NCBI RefSeq assembly: GCF_003236295.1
Contig: NZ_POTW01000047.1
Location: 1 to 50,052, forward strand
Reading direction: 5' to 3'
Origin: Jiangella anatolica
GTDB lineage: Bacteria > Actinomycetota > Actinomycetes > Jiangellales > Jiangellaceae
Length of the DNA: 50,052 nucleotides
Below are positions 44,078-50,040 of this stretch, piece after piece. The notes under the pieces were generated by a model. That model had not been told where the DNA came from and searched no databases. It saw only the letters and a list, made by a program, of their open reading frames with translations. Positions within the stretch are counted from its first letter, which is position 1. Each line of letters opens with the position of its first letter. The position numbers and the translations under genes were made by a program.

Positions 44078-45637
44078 ATGACTGTGCGGATCGCCAGGGT
44101 GGGCGTCGTCGGGCTGGGGACGATGGGCGCGGGCATCGCGGAGGTGTTCGCGCGGGCCGGCCTCGACGTCGTCGGCGTGGAGCGCGACGACGCGGCGCTC
44201 GCGGCCGGGCGCGGCCACCTCGACGCGTCGACCGGCCGGGCCGTGAAGCGAGGCAAGCTCACGGCCGAGGAGCAGGCGGCGCTGGCCGGCCGGATCGCGT
44301 TCACCACCGATCTCGCCGCGCTGGCCGACGCCGACCTCGTCGTCGAGGCGGTACCGGAGCGGCTGGACCTCAAGCGCGACCTGTTCGGCCGGCTCGACGG
44401 CATCGTCCGGGCCGACGCCGTCCTCGCGACCAACACGTCCTCGCTGTCGGTGACGGAGATCGGCGTCGCGGTGTCGCACCCGGAGCGGGTCGTCGGCATG
44501 CACTTCTTCAACCCGGCGCCGGTGCAAGACCTGATCGAGGTCGTGCGCACGGTGGTGACCGGGCCGGAGGTCGCCGACGCCGTCACCGAGCTCGCGCGGC
44601 GGCTCGGCAAGACGCCGGTGGCCTGTGGCGACCGGGCCGGGTTCGTCACGAACGCGCTGCTGTTCGGGTACCTGAACCGGGCGGCGGCGATGTACGAGAG
44701 CGGGCACGCGTCGCGCGAGGACATCGACGCGGCGACGACGGCGGGGCTGGGCTACCCGATGGGCCCGCTGGCGCTGCTGGACCTGATCGGACTCGACACC
44801 GCGCAGGAGATCCTGGCGACGATGTACCGGCAGGGCCGCAACCGGCTGCACGCGCCGGCCCCCGTCCTGGGCGAGCTCGTGACGCTGGGGTTCCTCGGCC
44901 GCAAGTCCGGTCGCGGCTTCTACGACTACTCGGTGGACGACGGTGTCGGCGCGGGGTCCGCTGTGGTTCCTCCTGATGCCCACCGGGTCCGCCGCGTCGG
45001 ATTCCGCGACCCCGCGTCGGCCGGGACGCTCCCGGACGCGCTGGCCAAGGCCGGCCACGACGTCGTCCTCGACGGGGCCGACGTCGATGTCCTCGTCGCG
45101 CCGGGCGACCCCGAGACGTTCGCCCGGCTCGGCGCCGAGGCCGGTCCCGGCGCCGTGCTGGTGGCCCTCGGCGACGGCCCGGTCGTCGCGGCGGCCGCCG
45201 CCAGCGGCCGGCCCGCGGACGTCGTCGGACTGCACCTGGCCGGGCCGTCCGGCGCCGTCGCCGAGGTCGTCCGCACCGTCGTCTCCGCCCCTGGCGCCGT
45301 GGACACCGTCGCCGGCCTCGCGACCTCCGCCGGGCTGACCACCGTCGTCTGCGCCGACCGCGCCGGGTTCGTCGTCGACGCGCTGCTGGTGCCCTACCTC
45401 AACGACGCCGTCACGATGCTGGAGACCGGGTACGCCTCGGCCGCCGACGTCGACACCGCGATGCGGCTGGGCTGCCGGCTGCCGGCCGGTCCGTTCGAGC
45501 TGCTGGACGGGCTCGGACCGGCCGCCGCGCTGGCGACGCTGGAGCGGCTGCAGGCCGAGGTCCGCGAGCCCGGCCTGGCGCCGTCGCCGCTGCTCAGGCA
45601 GCTGGCGACGACCGGCCTGCGGTTCGCCGACCTCTGA
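44078..45637 (+). CDS. 3-hydroxyacyl-CoA dehydrogenase
   Basis: This 519-aa enzyme oxidises 3-hydroxyacyl-CoA with NAD. The N-terminal Rossmann fold starts GVVGLGTMGAGIAEVFARAG; NTSSLSV, HPERVVGMHFFNPAP (catalytic His-Glu region) and DRAGFVTNALLFGYLNRA with GYPMGPLALLDLIGLD mark the first C-domain. After residue 285 a degenerate second copy follows: a reduced Rossmann-like stretch without GxGxxG, then ADRAGFVVDALLVPYLNDA and GCRLPAGPFELLDGLG. This duplicated C-domain resembles PaaH-type enzymes. ATG is 6 nt after TAGACT. The STAND gene follows after one base. Confidence 0.92.
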   Translation: MTVRIARVGVVGLGTMGAGIAEVFARAGLDVVGVERDDAALAAGRGHLDASTGRAVKRGKLTAEEQAALAGRIAFTTDLAALADADLVVEAVPERLDLKRDLFGRLDGIVRADAVLATNTSSLSVTEIGVAVSHPERVVGMHFFNPAPVQDLIEVVRTVVTGPEVADAVTELARRLGKTPVACGDRAGFVTNALLFGYLNRAAAMYESGHASREDIDAATTAGLGYPMGPLALLDLIGLDTAQEILATMYRQGRNRLHAPAPVLGELVTLGFLGRKSGRGFYDYSVDDGVGAGSAVVPPDAHRVRRVGFRDPASAGTLPDALAKAGHDVVLDGADVDVLVAPGDPETFARLGAEAGPGAVLVALGDGPVVAAAAASGRPADVVGLHLAGPSGAVAEVVRTVVSAPGAVDTVAGLATSAGLTTVVCADRAGFVVDALLVPYLNDAVTMLETGYASAADVDTAMRLGCRLPAGPFELLDGLGPAAALATLERLQAEVREPGLAPSPLLRQLATTGLRFADL

Positions 45638-45638
45638 C

Positions 45639-48293
45639 ATGGGGGAGCGACGCCCGCAGGCGGTCGGCCTGTGGACCCTCGACGACCTGGCGGCGGGGCT
45701 GGCCCGGCTGCGGGTGTGGGCCGGCTCGCCGTCGTTCAGCGAGATCACCCGCCGGGTCGCGGCGCACCGCGTCGCTCGCGGAGTGCGCGGCGGCGCCGCA
45801 CAGCCGGGCCGGGTCACCGTCTACGACGCGTTCCAGCCGGGCCGGCGGCGGGTGGACGCGGAGCTGGTCGGCGACATCGTCGCCGCGCTCGGGCTGTCGG
45901 AGTCCGAGGCGCTGACCTGGCGGCTGGCCGCGGGCCGGGCGATGGGCGCGGTGCCGGAACAGCTCGTGCCGGTCTCCGCGACGGTCGCCGAGCCGGTGCC
46001 GGAGTTCACCGGGCGCGGCCGTGAGCTCGTCGCGATCGCCGACGCCCGGGCCGACGCCGTCACGCTGATCACCGGCATGGCCGGCGTCGGCAAGACCGAG
46101 CTGGCCCTGCGCGCCGCCGCGGTCCTTCGGTCGCGGACCCCGGGCCTCGCGACGCTGTTCGTCGATCTGCGCGGGTTCGAGCCGGACGGTGCGCCGCTCA
46201 CGCCCGGGTCGGTGCTGGTGGCGATGCTGCGGCTGCTGGGCGAGGACGATCCGCGCTGGCGAGCCGACGCCCCAGAGGCGCTGGCTGTGCAGTGCCGGCG
46301 GCGGCTCGCGGACCGGCCGCACCTCGTCGTCCTCGACAACGCCGGGGGCGAGGAGCAGCTGGCGCCGCTGCTCGCGGCCACCACACCGGCCCGGGTCCTC
46401 GTGACCAGCCGGCTCGCGCTGCCCGGCCTGGACGAGGCCGTCCGTGGGCGCGGCGGCCCGCAGCGGATCGGGCTGGAGCCGTTCACCGACGCCGAGTCGC
46501 TGGAGCTGTTCCGGACCATGGCCGGCGCCGAGCGGGTGGACGCCGAGCCGGAGGCCGCGCTCGAGATCGCCCGCGCCGACGGCCGGCTGCCGCTAGCGCT
46601 GGGCATCACGGCCCGGCGGATCGCGGCTCGTCCGGACTGGACCCTGGCCGAGCTCGCCCATCCGCTGCGCAAGCGGCTCGACGGGCTGCGCCTGGAGCCG
46701 GACGTGGACACGTCGCTGGCGCTGTCGTACCGCGGCCTGCCCCGCGACGACCAGCGGTTCGTCCGGCTGCTCCCGCTGCATCCCGGCCAGCACCTGGACG
46801 CGCCGGCCGCCGCGGCGCTGGCCGGCATCGACGTCGAGGCGGCGGCCGACCGGCTGGCGGAGCTCGCCGACCAGCACCTGGTCCGCCGCAGCGCTCCCGG
46901 CACCTTCGGCCTGCATGACCTCGTCCGGGCCCAGCTCGTCGCCGCCTCGCTCGACGAGGACCGGCCGGCGGAGCGGTCGGCGGCCGTCGCGCGGCTCTTC
47001 GACCACTACCGGCTGGCGGTCGCGCGCATGGCGCAGGAGCTGGAGCAGCTGGGCCCGGCGCTGGCCGGGCTGCCGCTGCTCCCGGCCGACCCTCCGGACG
47101 GCGGCCCGCGACCGTCCGCCGTCGCCGCCCCGGCGGACCGGGCGGCGGCGGTCGCCTGGCTGGACGCCAAGGCCGCCGCGCTGGTCGCGCTGATCCAGGA
47201 CGAGTACGCCTCCGAGCACGCCGAGGCGACGGTGGCGCTGGTCCTGCTGCTCACGCCGTACCTGAACCTGCGCACCGACCTGCAAGTGGTGCTCGACCTG
47301 CACCTGCGCGCCCGCGACGCCGCCGAGCGATACGGCGACCCGGTCGTCGTCGCGGCGACCGAGCGGAACATCGGGGGCACCTGGCTGCGGATCGGCGACA
47401 TGGAGGCGGGACGCCGGCACCTCGCGGCGGCGGCCGAGCTGTTCGGCGGCGTCGGCCACGAGCTCGGGCTCGCGCAGGCGCTGAACTCGCTGGCGATCGT
47501 GCACGCCGAGACAGGGGACTTCGCCGCCGCCGTCGAGGGGTTCCGAACGGCGCGCGACATCTACCAGCGGCACGGCGAGGAGCGCCGGGCCCGGATGACG
47601 GCGGACAACCTGGCGGTCACGCAGCAGCACACCGGCCAGCTCGAGGAGGGGCTGGCCCACTTCGAGAAGGAGGTCGCGATCTGCCGGCGCAACGGCGAAC
47701 GCGACCAGGAGGTGATGGTGCTGACCAACGCGGCGGCGTTCTGCCTGCAGCTCGGCCGGTTCGCCGACGCGCGCCACCACTCCGAGCGGGGCGTGGAGCT
47801 GGCCCTGGAGATCGGCGACCGGATGGGCGCGGCCTATCACGGGCACTGCCTGAGCGAGGCGCTGGCCGCGCTGGGCGAGTTCGACGCGGCCGAGCGGCGC
47901 CTGCAGGACGCGCTCGAGCTCGCGCGAGAGCTGGGTGACCGCGGGCTGGAGGCTCGGCTGCACAGCGCCGCCGGCGTGGCCGCTCGCTACCGCGGCGACC
48001 TCGACGAGGCCGAGCGGGCGTTCACCGCCGCCCGTGACCTCGCCGCGGAGCTGTCCGATCCGATCCGCACCGCGGTCGCGGACGAGGGCCTGGCCGCAGT
48101 GCGGTGTGCGCGCGGCGACCGCGAGGGTGCCCGCGAGGTCTGGGCCCGGACCGGTGAGAGCTACCGGTCGGCGTCGGAACCGTCCGCTCGCCGCGTCCTC
48201 GATCATCTGGCGCAGCTCGACGCCGGGGCGGACTGCGGCTGCGCGCGGCCGGACGCGCCACTGGTCGTCGAGCGCGGCCTCACCAGGGTCTGA
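45639..48293 (+). CDS. STAND NTPase with TPR repeats, putative signalling regulator
   Basis: This 884-aa cytoplasmic protein has an N-terminal helical region of about 100 residues resembling a helix-turn-helix (LRVWAGSPSFSEITRRVAAHR, VGDIVAALGLSESEALTW), an NB-ARC-type NTPase with P-loop GMAGVGKTELAL (about 147-154) and Walker B HLVVLDNAGGEEQL, a winged-helix region, and about seven TPR-like repeats (about 560-860: ERNIGGTWLRIGDMEAGRRHLAAA, ADNLAVTQQHTGQLEEGL). This matches the actinobacterial AfsR-like/STAND regulator class without a SARP domain. It starts one base after the dehydrogenase stop, an odd pairing, and is followed 142 bp later by a tiny secreted peptide gene. Ligand unknown. Confidence 0.9.
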   Translation: MGERRPQAVGLWTLDDLAAGLARLRVWAGSPSFSEITRRVAAHRVARGVRGGAAQPGRVTVYDAFQPGRRRVDAELVGDIVAALGLSESEALTWRLAAGRAMGAVPEQLVPVSATVAEPVPEFTGRGRELVAIADARADAVTLITGMAGVGKTELALRAAAVLRSRTPGLATLFVDLRGFEPDGAPLTPGSVLVAMLRLLGEDDPRWRADAPEALAVQCRRRLADRPHLVVLDNAGGEEQLAPLLAATTPARVLVTSRLALPGLDEAVRGRGGPQRIGLEPFTDAESLELFRTMAGAERVDAEPEAALEIARADGRLPLALGITARRIAARPDWTLAELAHPLRKRLDGLRLEPDVDTSLALSYRGLPRDDQRFVRLLPLHPGQHLDAPAAAALAGIDVEAAADRLAELADQHLVRRSAPGTFGLHDLVRAQLVAASLDEDRPAERSAAVARLFDHYRLAVARMAQELEQLGPALAGLPLLPADPPDGGPRPSAVAAPADRAAAVAWLDAKAAALVALIQDEYASEHAEATVALVLLLTPYLNLRTDLQVVLDLHLRARDAAERYGDPVVVAATERNIGGTWLRIGDMEAGRRHLAAAAELFGGVGHELGLAQALNSLAIVHAETGDFAAAVEGFRTARDIYQRHGEERRARMTADNLAVTQQHTGQLEEGLAHFEKEVAICRRNGERDQEVMVLTNAAAFCLQLGRFADARHHSERGVELALEIGDRMGAAYHGHCLSEALAALGEFDAAERRLQDALELARELGDRGLEARLHSAAGVAARYRGDLDEAERAFTAARDLAAELSDPIRTAVADEGLAAVRCARGDREGAREVWARTGESYRSASEPSARRVLDHLAQLDAGADCGCARPDAPLVVERGLTRV

Positions 48294-48435
48294 CCCCGCC
48301 GCCGTTCGGGGTCGTTCGGGAATCGCCCGATCGGCGCCGAACCGGGCGGAGCGGCGCGGCGTCGTCCCTACCGTTGCGATGCCGGCGCCGCCCTGGCACC
48401 GGCGAATCCGCTGTCCGCAGTCGAAGGGGAATGAC

Positions 48436-48609
48436 ATGAAGAAGCGCATGGTGATGACGCTGGCCACGCTCGGCGTCGTGGCCGCGGCCTCGGTGGGCGC
48501 GACGATGCCGGCGAGCGCGTCCAGCTACTCGGGGTACAAGGACGCGCTCGGCTTCACCTACGTGTTCAAGGACGGCCAGCTCTACCTGGTCAGCTACTCG
48601 CCCAACTGA
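48436..48609 (+). CDS. Small secreted peptide, 57 aa, unknown
   Basis: This short gene has a textbook signal peptide: MKKRMVM, hydrophobic TLATLGVVAAASVGATM, then PASASS with cleavage expected after ASA. The mature peptide is about 29 residues, aromatic-rich and uncharged overall (YSGYKDALGFTYVF, YLVSYSPN), with no cysteine. ATG 48436 has AAGGGGA about 6 nt upstream. A 15-bp stem terminator follows 12 bp after the stop, so this is a discrete transcript. It lies just downstream of the STAND/TPR gene. No family recognised; a signalling or surface peptide is possible. Confidence 0.78.
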   Translation: MKKRMVMTLATLGVVAAASVGATMPASASSYSGYKDALGFTYVFKDGQLYLVSYSPN

Positions 48610-48621
48610 CGGGCACATCGA

Positions 48622-48668
48622 TCGACGGGGAGTCGCCGGCGCTCGGGGGATGTGCGACTCCCCGTCGA
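48622..48668. terminator. 15-bp stem-loop after the small peptide gene
   Basis: TCGACGGGGAGTCGC (48622-48636) pairs perfectly with GCGACTCCCCGTCGA (48654-48668) around a 17-nt loop. There is no T-tract. Confidence 0.65.
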
Positions 48669-48759: not shown

Positions 48760-49380
48760 ATGCGCCGAGCCGTCCTCACCCTCCTCGCGACCCTCGCCGT
48801 CCTCGTCGGGCTGGTCAGCGCCGCCCACGCCTACCCGCCGGATCCGCCGTCGCCGTCGGAGTCGGCCAGCCAGCTCGCCGATCTCACCGTCGCGCCGCCC
48901 GGCTCCAGCGACGGCTACTCACGTGACCGGTTCCCGCACTGGAGCCCCGCCGAAGGGACCTGCAACACCCGCGAGACGGTGCTGGTCCGCGACGGATCCG
49001 GCGTCATGACCGGCGCCGACTGCTACCCGACCGCGGGCCGGTGGTACAGCGTCTACGACCAGGTCTGGATCGAGGAGCCGGGTGACGTCTCCGTCGACCA
49101 CATGGTGCCGCTGGCCAACGCCTGGCGCTCCGGCGCCAGTTCGTGGACCGAGGACCGGCGCGAGGACTTCGCGAACGACCTCGCTCGCGGCCAGCTGATC
49201 GCCGTCACCGCGTCCAGCAACAGCTCCAAGGGTGACAGCGACCCATCGGAGTGGAAGCCGGCGAACCAGGACTGGTGGTGCTACTACGCCCGGCACTGGA
49301 CCGACGTGAAGTACGACTGGGACCTCACCGTCACCAGCGCGGAGAAGGCGGCATTGCACCAGATGTTGGGCACTTGCTGA
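48760..49380 (+). CDS. Secreted HNH/DUF1524-like nuclease
   Basis: This 206-aa exported protein has a signal peptide (AVLTLLATLAVLVGLVSAAHA) and a C-terminal HNH domain of the GmrSD/DUF1524 type: VSVDHMVPLANAWRSGA (Asp113/His114) and the later TASSNSSKGDSDPSEW with the conserved Asn and Lys-Gly-Asp-xx-Pro. Three of the four cysteines outside the signal (TCNTRE, ADCYP, WWCYY, GTC end) could pair, fitting an extracellular enzyme. AGGAGG lies 8 nt before ATG 48760. Probable roles are extracellular DNA degradation or nutrient scavenging. The next gene's promoter overlaps its stop codon. Confidence 0.9.
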   Translation: MRRAVLTLLATLAVLVGLVSAAHAYPPDPPSPSESASQLADLTVAPPGSSDGYSRDRFPHWSPAEGTCNTRETVLVRDGSGVMTGADCYPTAGRWYSVYDQVWIEEPGDVSVDHMVPLANAWRSGASSWTEDRREDFANDLARGQLIAVTASSNSSKGDSDPSEWKPANQDWWCYYARHWTDVKYDWDLTVTSAEKAALHQMLGTC

Positions 49381-49458: not shown

Positions 49459-50040
49459 GTGCGTGGACTTCGGCTGCTGCCGGCGGGGCTGGCCGCGCTG
49501 CTGCTGACCGTCGCCCCGGCCGAGGCCCAGGCGGCCGGCTGCGGCGGGTTCGGCGACGACCTGACCGGCAGCGACGCGATCAGCGCGTCGCTCTCCGACG
49601 ACGGCACCCGGCTCAGCGTCGGGGTTCGTGACGAGCGCTACTCGATCACAGCGGTGGGGGTGCGCGGCGGGCCCGACCACCGCGTCTACACCGACCCGCC
49701 GTTCACCGGGTTGACGGCGCCGGCCCTGCCCAACGGCCGGGCGCGCGAGATCGCCGACTGGTTCGTCTGCGGCGCCCGCGTCGCCGCAGAGCCGCCATCG
49801 CCGACACCCACGCCCACACCGACGCCCACACCGACGCCGACGCCCACACCGACGCCGACGCCGACTCCCACGCCGACGCCCGCGCCCGCCCCGACGTCGT
49901 TCCCGGTGCCCACCGCGATCCCGGCCGGCGGCTCGGCGGGCGACGACTCCGGTGTCTCGGCGCCGTACGCCATCCTCGTGATCGCCGGCGGGGCGGCCGC
50001 GGCCGGCTGGGCGCTGATCAGGAGCCGGCGTGCCGGCTGA
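49459..50040 (+). CDS. Cell-surface protein with Pro-Thr repeat stalk
   Basis: This 193-aa protein has a signal peptide (LLPAGLAALLLTVAPAEAQA), a folded domain of about 90 residues with two cysteines (GCGGFGD, FVCGAR), a stalk of about 17 Pro-Thr dipeptides (about residues 113-148, coded by 6-bp repeats at about 49797-49890), and a C-terminal membrane helix (YAILVIAGGAAAAGWALI) followed by RSRRAG. The tail looks like a membrane anchor, but no LPXTG sortase motif is seen. GTG 49459 follows a strong promoter. The Pro-Thr stalk would hold the domain away from the membrane. Function unknown. Confidence 0.85.
   Translation: MRGLRLLPAGLAALLLTVAPAEAQAAGCGGFGDDLTGSDAISASLSDDGTRLSVGVRDERYSITAVGVRGGPDHRVYTDPPFTGLTAPALPNGRAREIADWFVCGARVAAEPPSPTPTPTPTPTPTPTPTPTPTPTPTPTPAPAPTSFPVPTAIPAGGSAGDDSGVSAPYAILVIAGGAAAAGWALIRSRRAG

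What the first reader, a model, noticed from the sequence alone, without database searches (positions are those of the whole stretch)
45639..48668. STAND/TPR regulator paired with a tiny exported peptide gene
An 884-aa NB-ARC/TPR protein is followed within 142 bp by a self-contained gene for a 57-aa pre-peptide with a clean signal sequence and its own 15-bp stem terminator. Regulator-peptide pairs with TPR receptors (RRNPP systems) are known mainly in Firmicutes; a STAND-type receptor with an uncharged aromatic 29-residue peptide would be a different design. Adjacency is seen; the signalling link is inferred.
Basis: partly seen in the sequence, partly recalled or inferred. Interest (0 to 1): 0.62.

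Follow-up and report, generated by a model that had tools for sequence, protein, structure and literature searches.

The report
Regulator cassette controlling tiny exported peptide
In an actinomycete, a large ATP-dependent sensor protein sits, as a small inserted two-gene cassette, beside a gene for a tiny exported peptide, and a DNA switch in front of that gene recurs at related cassettes with different peptides, which suggests that the sensor controls release of the peptide.

Summary
In detail: 884-aa NB-ARC/TPR protein (45639-48293), 142-bp gap, 57-aa Sec-type pre-peptide (48436-48609), perfect 15-bp stem. The window peptide has no detectable relative. The pair is still more than adjacency. 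(1) NTPase, peptide and stem form one ~3.03-kb insert between genes that are direct neighbours in 7 of 11 other genus genomes. (2) A paralogue (70%), a G008 homologue (68%) and a 37%-identical NTPase of another lineage each lie next to another tiny exported peptide; two more NTPases have one within ~620 bp; 13 of 19 have none. (3) GTTCGGGGTCGTTCGG, a direct repeat, lies 82-116 nt before three of the peptide genes and nowhere else exactly in 12 genomes; variants precede two others, against 0 of 212 control regions; the sixth lacks it. The NTPase has an XRE-like N-terminal fold and an AfsR-like NOD-TPR. Best reading: a STAND regulator dedicated to one exported-peptide gene, AfsR-to-afsS in logic, plcR-papR in layout. 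Peptide signalling back to the NTPase is possible but unshown.

The parts
45638..48668 (+). inserted two-gene cassette (NTPase + operator + exported peptide + stem), about 3.03 kb
   Evidence: flanking genes are direct neighbours in 7 of 11 other genus genomes; likeness to the empty site ends at the 3HCDH stop (45637) and resumes about where the stem ends
45639..48293 (+). 884-aa STAND regulator (XRE-like HTH, NB-ARC/NOD, winged region, TPR)
45678..45941 (+). N-terminal helical domain, residues 14-101, XRE/lambda-repressor-like
   Evidence: AF2 pLDDT 87.8; top rows mostly XRE proteins, HipB 4z5h Z 7.0, 67 aligned, rmsd 2.0; no Pfam or PDB sequence match
46059..46613 (+). NB-ARC domain, residues 141-325 (P-loop GMAGVGKT)
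   Evidence: PF00931; profile match to AfsR 8k60 E 2e-135
47139..48221 (+). TPR superhelix, residues 501-861
48304..48319 (+). operator GTTCGGGGTCGTTCGG (7-mer direct repeat, 10-bp period)
   Evidence: exact copies only here, at G000 C122:22103-22118 and at G008 C1:2076660-2076675 in 12 genomes; two exact and no one-mismatch site in the own genome
48327..48342 (-). possible second, inverted operator-like site (3 mismatches)
   Evidence: weak
48369..48374 (+). possible -10 element TACCGT (only TANNNT in the gap)
   Evidence: 49 bp from the operator, 39 bp at C122 and G008; low information
48423..48429 (+). ribosome-binding site GAAGGGG
   Evidence: read directly
48436..48609 (+). 57-aa exported pre-peptide gene (signal 48436-48519; mature 29 aa 48520-48606)
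   Evidence: cleavage site by reading
48622..48668 (+). 15-bp perfect stem with 17-nt loop, probable U-less terminator, at the right end of the insert
44078..45637 (+). left flank: 3-hydroxyacyl-CoA dehydrogenase (3HCDH), stop 1 nt before the NTPase ATG
48760..49380 (+). right flank: exported GmrSD_C-domain protein, conserved in the genus

Best explanation
The NTPase is an AfsR-like STAND transcription regulator whose SARP head is replaced by an XRE-type DNA-binding domain. It is dedicated to one target, the neighbouring gene for a tiny Sec-exported peptide. Steps: (a) an unknown cue binds the TPR part and, with ATP, lets the NOD oligomerise (inferred from AfsR, MalT and NLR biology); (b) the HTH binds the direct repeat GNYCGG-N4-GTYCGG about 80-115 nt before the peptide start (site shown by comparison; binding inferred); (c) from there, upstream of the likely -35/-10, it most likely activates the peptide promoter (inferred from position; repression not excluded); (d) the peptide is exported, cleaved and acts outside, more likely as an effector than as the NTPase's own ligand. 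The unit moves as a cassette, and the peptide can be replaced by an unrelated one while NTPase and operator stay.
For: Joint insert and empty sites. C122 and G008 share one block, at 80% nt identity, that runs from the end of the peptide gene to the end of the NTPase. Type-2 peptide at E<1e-30 in 3 of 393 class genomes, each beside an NTPase of this family: divergent at C122 and G008, 139 bp downstream on the same strand in G001. G001's NTPase belongs to another supported lineage. Clean exported peptides also near the NTPases of G003 and G020. Operator: exact 16-mer 3 times in 12 genomes, all at these loci and in the same sense relative to the peptide gene although the NTPase lies on the other side in two; G003 GTCCGGGATCGTCCGG (3 mismatches) and G001 GATCGGATCCGTCCGG, both 103 nt before their peptide ATG; 0 of 212 control upstream stretches have such a site on the sense strand. 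The type-2-like peptide of G017, with no such NTPase among the ORFs listed beside it, lacks the site. HTH residues 37-105 are 0.81 identical between window and C122, in line with an identical operator. XRE-like fold; AfsR NOD-TPR.
Against: No expression, binding or peptidomic data. The window peptide has no relative in anything searched, so its role rests on position and operator. The operator pattern was generalised after seeing the sites; only G003's 3-mismatch site is near to an independent test, and it was noticed after a repeat scan. G020's peptide has no operator (best 6 mismatches). Nine one-mismatch sites elsewhere in the genus were not examined. 13 of 19 NTPases have no such peptide in about 1.5 kb; most of these have no site either, but G021 has two sites and no peptide; a site is expected by chance about 0.2 times per 5.5-kb locus at the rate. 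G003's peptide is about 615 bp from its NTPase behind another gene that reads as exported. XRE Z-scores are modest and Foldseek's best E-value was 1.7. Peptide dN/dS is 0.20 for C122-G008 but 1.15 for C122-G001, on few sites. The G008 NTPase frame is shifted within the HTH part. The exact type-2 search scored at most 16 candidates per genome, so copies without an NTPase may have been missed.
Confidence: 0.7

Rival explanations
1. RRNPP-like cell-to-cell signalling (a sub-reading of the regulation model): the exported peptide, or a processed fragment, re-enters the cell, binds the TPR groove and switches the NTPase, which in turn controls the peptide gene (feedback, as plcR-papR).
For: HTH plus TPR regulator with a Sec-type peptide gene 139-142 bp downstream in two cases, the layout described for Bacillales systems (PMC9765709 passages). 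The TPR model matches NprR (5dbk Z 26.3, 352 aligned, rmsd 5.0) and Rap. The TPR stretch 601-700 is the domain stretch (spacer aside) most diverged between window and C122, whose peptides differ (0.56 against 0.72 for C122-G008).
Against: LGN, whose function is unrelated, scores as high. The mature parts are long (29-34 aa), with two Cys in type 2. No importer or protease was examined. Unrelated peptides beside 70%-identical NTPases are awkward for a ligand. Of six arrangements three are divergent and one convergent at a distance.
Confidence: 0.2
2. Effector reading (the other sub-reading): the peptide is an antimicrobial, inhibitor or surface peptide whose release is switched by an NTPase that senses something else.
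For: The same NTPase type and operator go with unrelated peptides, as expected of interchangeable cargo; a type-2-like peptide exists without such an NTPase next to an FtsK/SpoIIIE-family ATPase gene in G017; type-2 peptides keep two Cys.
Against: No activity known, no immunity gene recognised, no Pfam match above cut-off.
Confidence: 0.5
3. Coincidental neighbours: the peptide gene is an unrelated small secreted-protein gene caught next to a common NB-ARC/TPR gene.
For: The window peptide is an orphan; 13 of 19 NTPase matches have no such peptide near.
Against: Joint insertion, repeated adjacency in two lineages, shared operator.
Confidence: 0.07

Closest known systems
AfsR-AfsS of Streptomyces (SARP-NOD-TPR activator and its small target)
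   Same: NOD-TPR body (profile E 2e-135 to 8k60, 3e-134 to 8jke); binds paired direct repeats to activate a very small gene (PMC10936776 and PMC4415409, passages seen); AfsS has 63 aa (PMC2267785, one passage). That afsS lies next to afsR is recalled.
   Different: SARP head replaced by an XRE-like domain; repeats 10 bp apart rather than 11; site well upstream rather than over the -35; target product exported, whereas AfsS is described as sigma-like.
RRNPP(A) systems, plcR-papR and nprR-nprX in particular
   Same: HTH + TPR regulator; Sec-type propeptide immediately downstream in the window and G001.
   Different: NOD between HTH and TPR, actinomycete host, long mature peptides, divergent arrangement in three of six cases, ligand role untested. 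A passage of PMC10075063 says that actinomycete quorum signals are typically small molecules.
HaaT / FxSxx-COOH TPR proteins of actinomycete RiPP systems
   Same: HaaT is the best NCBIfam name for the NTPase, FxSxx the third.
   Different: Scores far below cut-off (246.6 of 1125; 74.5 of 300); the pre-peptide here has a Sec signal; the insert holds no further gene.

Membership tests
RRNPP(A) | N-terminal HTH of XRE type | tested here: met
   fold match to HipB, C.Esp1396I, CI, Z 6.5-7.0; modest scores
RRNPP(A) | TPR superhelix | tested here: met
   Rap/NprR Z 22-26, but LGN 24-30
RRNPP(A) | HTH-TPR architecture without a NOD | tested here: not met
   NB-ARC at residues 141-325; CED-4-like NOD in the model, Z 28
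RRNPP(A) | adjacent Sec-exported propeptide | tested here: met
   signal peptide by reading and hydropathy
RRNPP(A) | re-imported mature peptide binds the receptor | not testable with these tools
   needs peptidomics, binding and reporter assays
AfsR / large SARP | NOD-TPR body | tested here: met
   profile positions 93-785
AfsR / large SARP | N-terminal SARP (OmpR-like + BTAD) domain | tested here: not met
   the AfsR match starts at AfsR residue 275; no Pfam match in residues 1-113; XRE-like fold
AfsR (NCBIfam NF053617) | score above curated cut-off | tested here: not met
   207.1 against 1430
HaaT (NCBIfam NF041717) | score above curated cut-off | tested here: not met
   246.6 against 1125

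The most novel reading that the evidence does not exclude
A peptide quorum-sensing family of Actinobacteria built on STAND NTPases: mobile cassettes of an XRE-NOD-TPR receptor, its own operator and an exchangeable exported pheromone, the NLR-like counterpart of PlcR-PapR.
Probability: 0.18. Interest if true: 0.85.

Novelty: new variant of a known kind. Interest (0 to 1): 0.62.

Why it matters
Proteins of this kind seem to be numerous in actinomycetes (a loose first look listed 42-70 unverified candidate places for this query in each of 12 genus genomes), and to my knowledge most have no known ligand or target. Here an operator can be read off by comparison and points to one very small exported product. 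That gives a testable input-output pair for a bacterial STAND regulator and a way to look for more peptides (near GNYCGG-N4-GTYCGG), and bears on whether actinomycetes use genetically encoded peptide signals.

Tried and rejected
Rejected: weak peptide hits in G019 and G039; G019's lies inside a gene that reads as a large ATPase, G039's was not opened. Type-2 hit in a viral contig: a chance stretch of a phage-like contig. The 5-row peptide profile matches 132 of 393 genomes at E <= 0.01; of the 17 loci opened beyond its own rows most read as Rpf-type transglycosylases (one confirmed by Pfam); the resemblance is left unexplained. Homology of the window peptide to the others: no better than shuffles; G003's peptide is near to type 2 (2 to 22 of 1000 shuffles reach the score) and to G020's (1 of 1000). 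Three ORFs that passed the first filter beside NTPases (L110, L113, L115) and one that passed the second (L110/L119, 52 aa) have no convincing signal peptide by eye. A stricter overlap filter kept the window and C122 peptides, dropped those of G008 and G001 and never held G003's (GC3 0.77); it passed 9 ORFs in 320 kb of background. Distant NTPase relatives L040-L059: the first filter passed one 48-aa ORF near L046's NTPase and a 116-aa lipoprotein-like ORF near L049's that could be exported; other passes unconvincing; L056 and L057 gave no NTPase ORF. Promoter and terminator scan: nothing. GC3 = 100% is not discriminating. Literature: listings showed no paper on such a pairing. Defence library: weak generic matches only.
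Full report
What is there. The window is one whole contig (G000:C198) of a 7.0-Mb assembly. The NTPase (45639-48293, 884 aa), the 142-bp gap, the 57-aa pre-peptide (48436-48609) and the 15-bp stem (48622-48668) are as described. The mature peptide has four charged residues and is net neutral.

The NTPase. Pfam gives NB-ARC and TPR. A 16-row profile finds AfsR as best solved relative (8k60, E 2e-135), over the NOD-TPR part only. The AlphaFold model (pLDDT 86.1) has a helical N-terminal domain; folded alone (pLDDT 87.8) it matches mostly XRE proteins: HipB Z 7.0, C.Esp1396I 6.6, TP901-1 CI 6.5 (the top row, Z 7.1, is a modelled protein of another name). Those scores are modest, and Foldseek itself gave no E-value below 1.7. 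The TPR part matches LGN, Rap, NprR and MalT at Z of about 22-30, which does not tell TPR proteins apart.

An insert. In 7 of 11 other genus genomes (G001, G004, G007, G008, G009, G010, G011) the 3-hydroxyacyl-CoA dehydrogenase and the exported GmrSD_C protein are direct neighbours. In G003 and G005 the gap is also too short for the cassette, in G006 they lie about 12 kb apart, and in G002 the dehydrogenase is cut by a contig end and the GmrSD_C protein was not found. Likeness to the empty site stops at the dehydrogenase stop codon and resumes about where the stem ends. NTPase, peptide and stem are thus one insert of about 3.03 kb.

The peptide. No relative at E <= 1e-3 in 392 other class genomes, a sample drawn from a larger group; two weak hits at E 0.002-0.005 among 59 relatives, of which the one opened is inside another gene; none confirmed among 593 pattern hits in genome contigs; none in plasmids or phages at E <= 0.1.

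Related NTPases have other tiny exported peptides. A paralogue in the same genome (C122, 70%) and one in G008 (68%) have a divergent 61-62-aa pre-peptide immediately upstream (...CVGHDYF.IDTETGGYGWWYNS.RCDYWP); G001's NTPase (37%) has a member of the same peptide family 139 bp downstream on the same strand. A profile of these three finds them, and nothing else below E 1e-4, in 393 class genomes, with at most 16 candidates scored per genome. All three are NTPase neighbours. The tree puts window, C122 and G008 in one clade (100/100) and G001 in another lineage with G003, G017, G020 and G021, so the association spans two lineages or has survived a partner change. Two more turned up: G003's NTPase has a two-Cys exported peptide about 615 bp away, convergent, behind a gene that reads as exported, and G020's second NTPase has a 66-aa exported peptide 357 bp upstream, divergent. 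Of 19 NTPase matches, 4 have such a peptide within 142 bp, 2 more within about 620 bp, and 13 none in the flanks held, which are about 1.5 kb and shorter where contigs end. The same detector on 320 kb of genus background passes 7 ORFs, none a clean exported peptide by eye; an earlier, laxer one passes 20 in 370 kb, of which only the window's is clean by eye. G017 has a type-2-like peptide with no such NTPase among the ORFs listed beside it; its large neighbour is an FtsK/SpoIIIE-family ATPase.

The cassette moves. C122 and G008 share one block at 80% identity that runs, to within a few bases, from the end of the peptide gene to the end of the NTPase. The flanks are otherwise unlike, apart from a 135-bp piece at 70%: in G008 that piece lies directly beside the cassette and is part of a 171-bp element with inverted-repeat ends; its partner in C122 lies about 3.5 kb off. 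The window shares with them only the NTPase ORF (76-77% nt) and the operator.

The operator. GTTCGGGGTCGTTCGG, two 7-mers 10 bp apart (the second has one change at its last base in C122), lies 116, 90 and 82 nt before the peptide start in window, C122 and G008, in the same sense relative to the peptide although the NTPase lies on the other side in two of them. In 12 genus genomes it occurs exactly three times, all here; at up to one mismatch there are 12 sites in all against 2 for the reversed control pattern, and the nine others were not examined. The own genome has two exact sites, none at one mismatch and ten at two, against 3 for the control. A dinucleotide model expects 0.014 exact sites per genome, a third-order model 0.023. 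G003's peptide has GTCCGGGATCGTCCGG and G001's GATCGGATCCGTCCGG, each 103 nt upstream. In 212 real upstream stretches the consensus does not occur on either strand; none comes within 3 mismatches of the window site on the sense strand and 2 do on either strand. The consensus was drawn after seeing the sites, so G003's closeness to the window site is the nearest to an independent test; a period-10 repeat alone is weak evidence (chance 0.03 per 140 bp; 6 of 213 real upstream stretches). G017's peptide lacks the site, and so does G020's, which does have an NTPase neighbour (best 6 mismatches): that is against a simple rule. G021's NTPase has two sites, one just behind its stop and before a second NTPase gene, but no peptide. 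At the rate a 5.5-kb locus holds about 0.2 sites by chance. In window, C122 and G008 the only TANNNT lies 49, 39 and 39 bp after the operator, one helical turn apart, which would centre the operator near -60/-70, where class I activators bind (CAP at -61.5 is mentioned in PMC10936776); this rests on a low-information motif, and G001 has none.

Mechanism. HTH residues 37-105 are as well kept between window and C122 (0.81) as between C122 and G008 (0.80), while TPR residues 601-700 are 0.56 against 0.72. That fits constant DNA reading and changing sensing, but is only directional. AfsR is the experimental precedent: paired direct repeats in the promoter of a very small target gene (PMC10936776 and PMC4415409, passages seen). 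The layout in window and G001 is that of Bacillales RRNPPA systems, pheromone gene immediately downstream and Sec-exported (PMC9765709, passages seen). Membership in either family fails on a tested feature. I commit to regulation of the peptide gene by the NTPase (0.7) and leave effector against signal open, favouring effector because unrelated peptides occupy the same place beside closely related regulators.

Novelty. The listings of the paper searches showed nothing describing such a pairing; the library lacks most subscription papers. I rate it a new variant of a known kind.

Noticed in passing
48760-49380 (+): Exported GmrSD_C-domain protein; matches at E <= 1e-20 in 14 of 21 other family genomes (one partial), so probably core in the genus.
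   Followed up: partly
49459-50040 (+): Exported protein with a Thr-Pro repeat linker and a C-terminal hydrophobic segment; by reading, a similar gene stands beside the nuclease-like gene in G007, G009 and G001.
   Followed up: no
L169 4482-9865 (G021 C7) and L168 3962-9398 (G020 C7): Tandem pairs of related NTPases; in G021 an operator-like GTCCGGAGTCGTCCGG lies between the two genes.
   Followed up: partly
L168 9756-9956 (+): 66-aa exported peptide divergent from G020's second NTPase, without the operator; distantly like G003's peptide.
   Followed up: partly
L110 4249-4524 of the reversed locus, minus strand: WXG100-like gene (PF06013 E 0.002, below cut-off) beside a G020 NTPase; CGGAAACTTCCG-like palindromes stand near NTPases of G017 and G021.
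   Followed up: no
L086 6682-6891 (+): Type-2-like exported peptide of G017 next to an FtsK/SpoIIIE-family ATPase gene that may belong to a type VII secretion locus.
   Followed up: partly
L009 896-1066: 171-bp element with inverted-repeat ends (CCTAGGGTGTGTCTCCC) directly beside the G008 cassette; a 70% partial copy lies near the C122 cassette. A possible clue to how cassettes move.
   Followed up: partly
L009 about 1410-1570: G008's NTPase gene changes frame within the HTH-coding part (sequencing error or decay).
   Followed up: no
type-2 peptides against Rpf-type proteins, L132-L155: The widened peptide profile picks up Rpf transglycosylases with similar Cys/Gly/Tyr spacing (E down to 4e-8); unexplained.
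   Followed up: partly
G004 C4:2620787, G009 C3:206313, G009 C8:323651, G010 C1:5071245: One-mismatch operator GTGCGGGGTCGTTCGG recurs in three genomes away from these NTPases; targets not examined.
   Followed up: no
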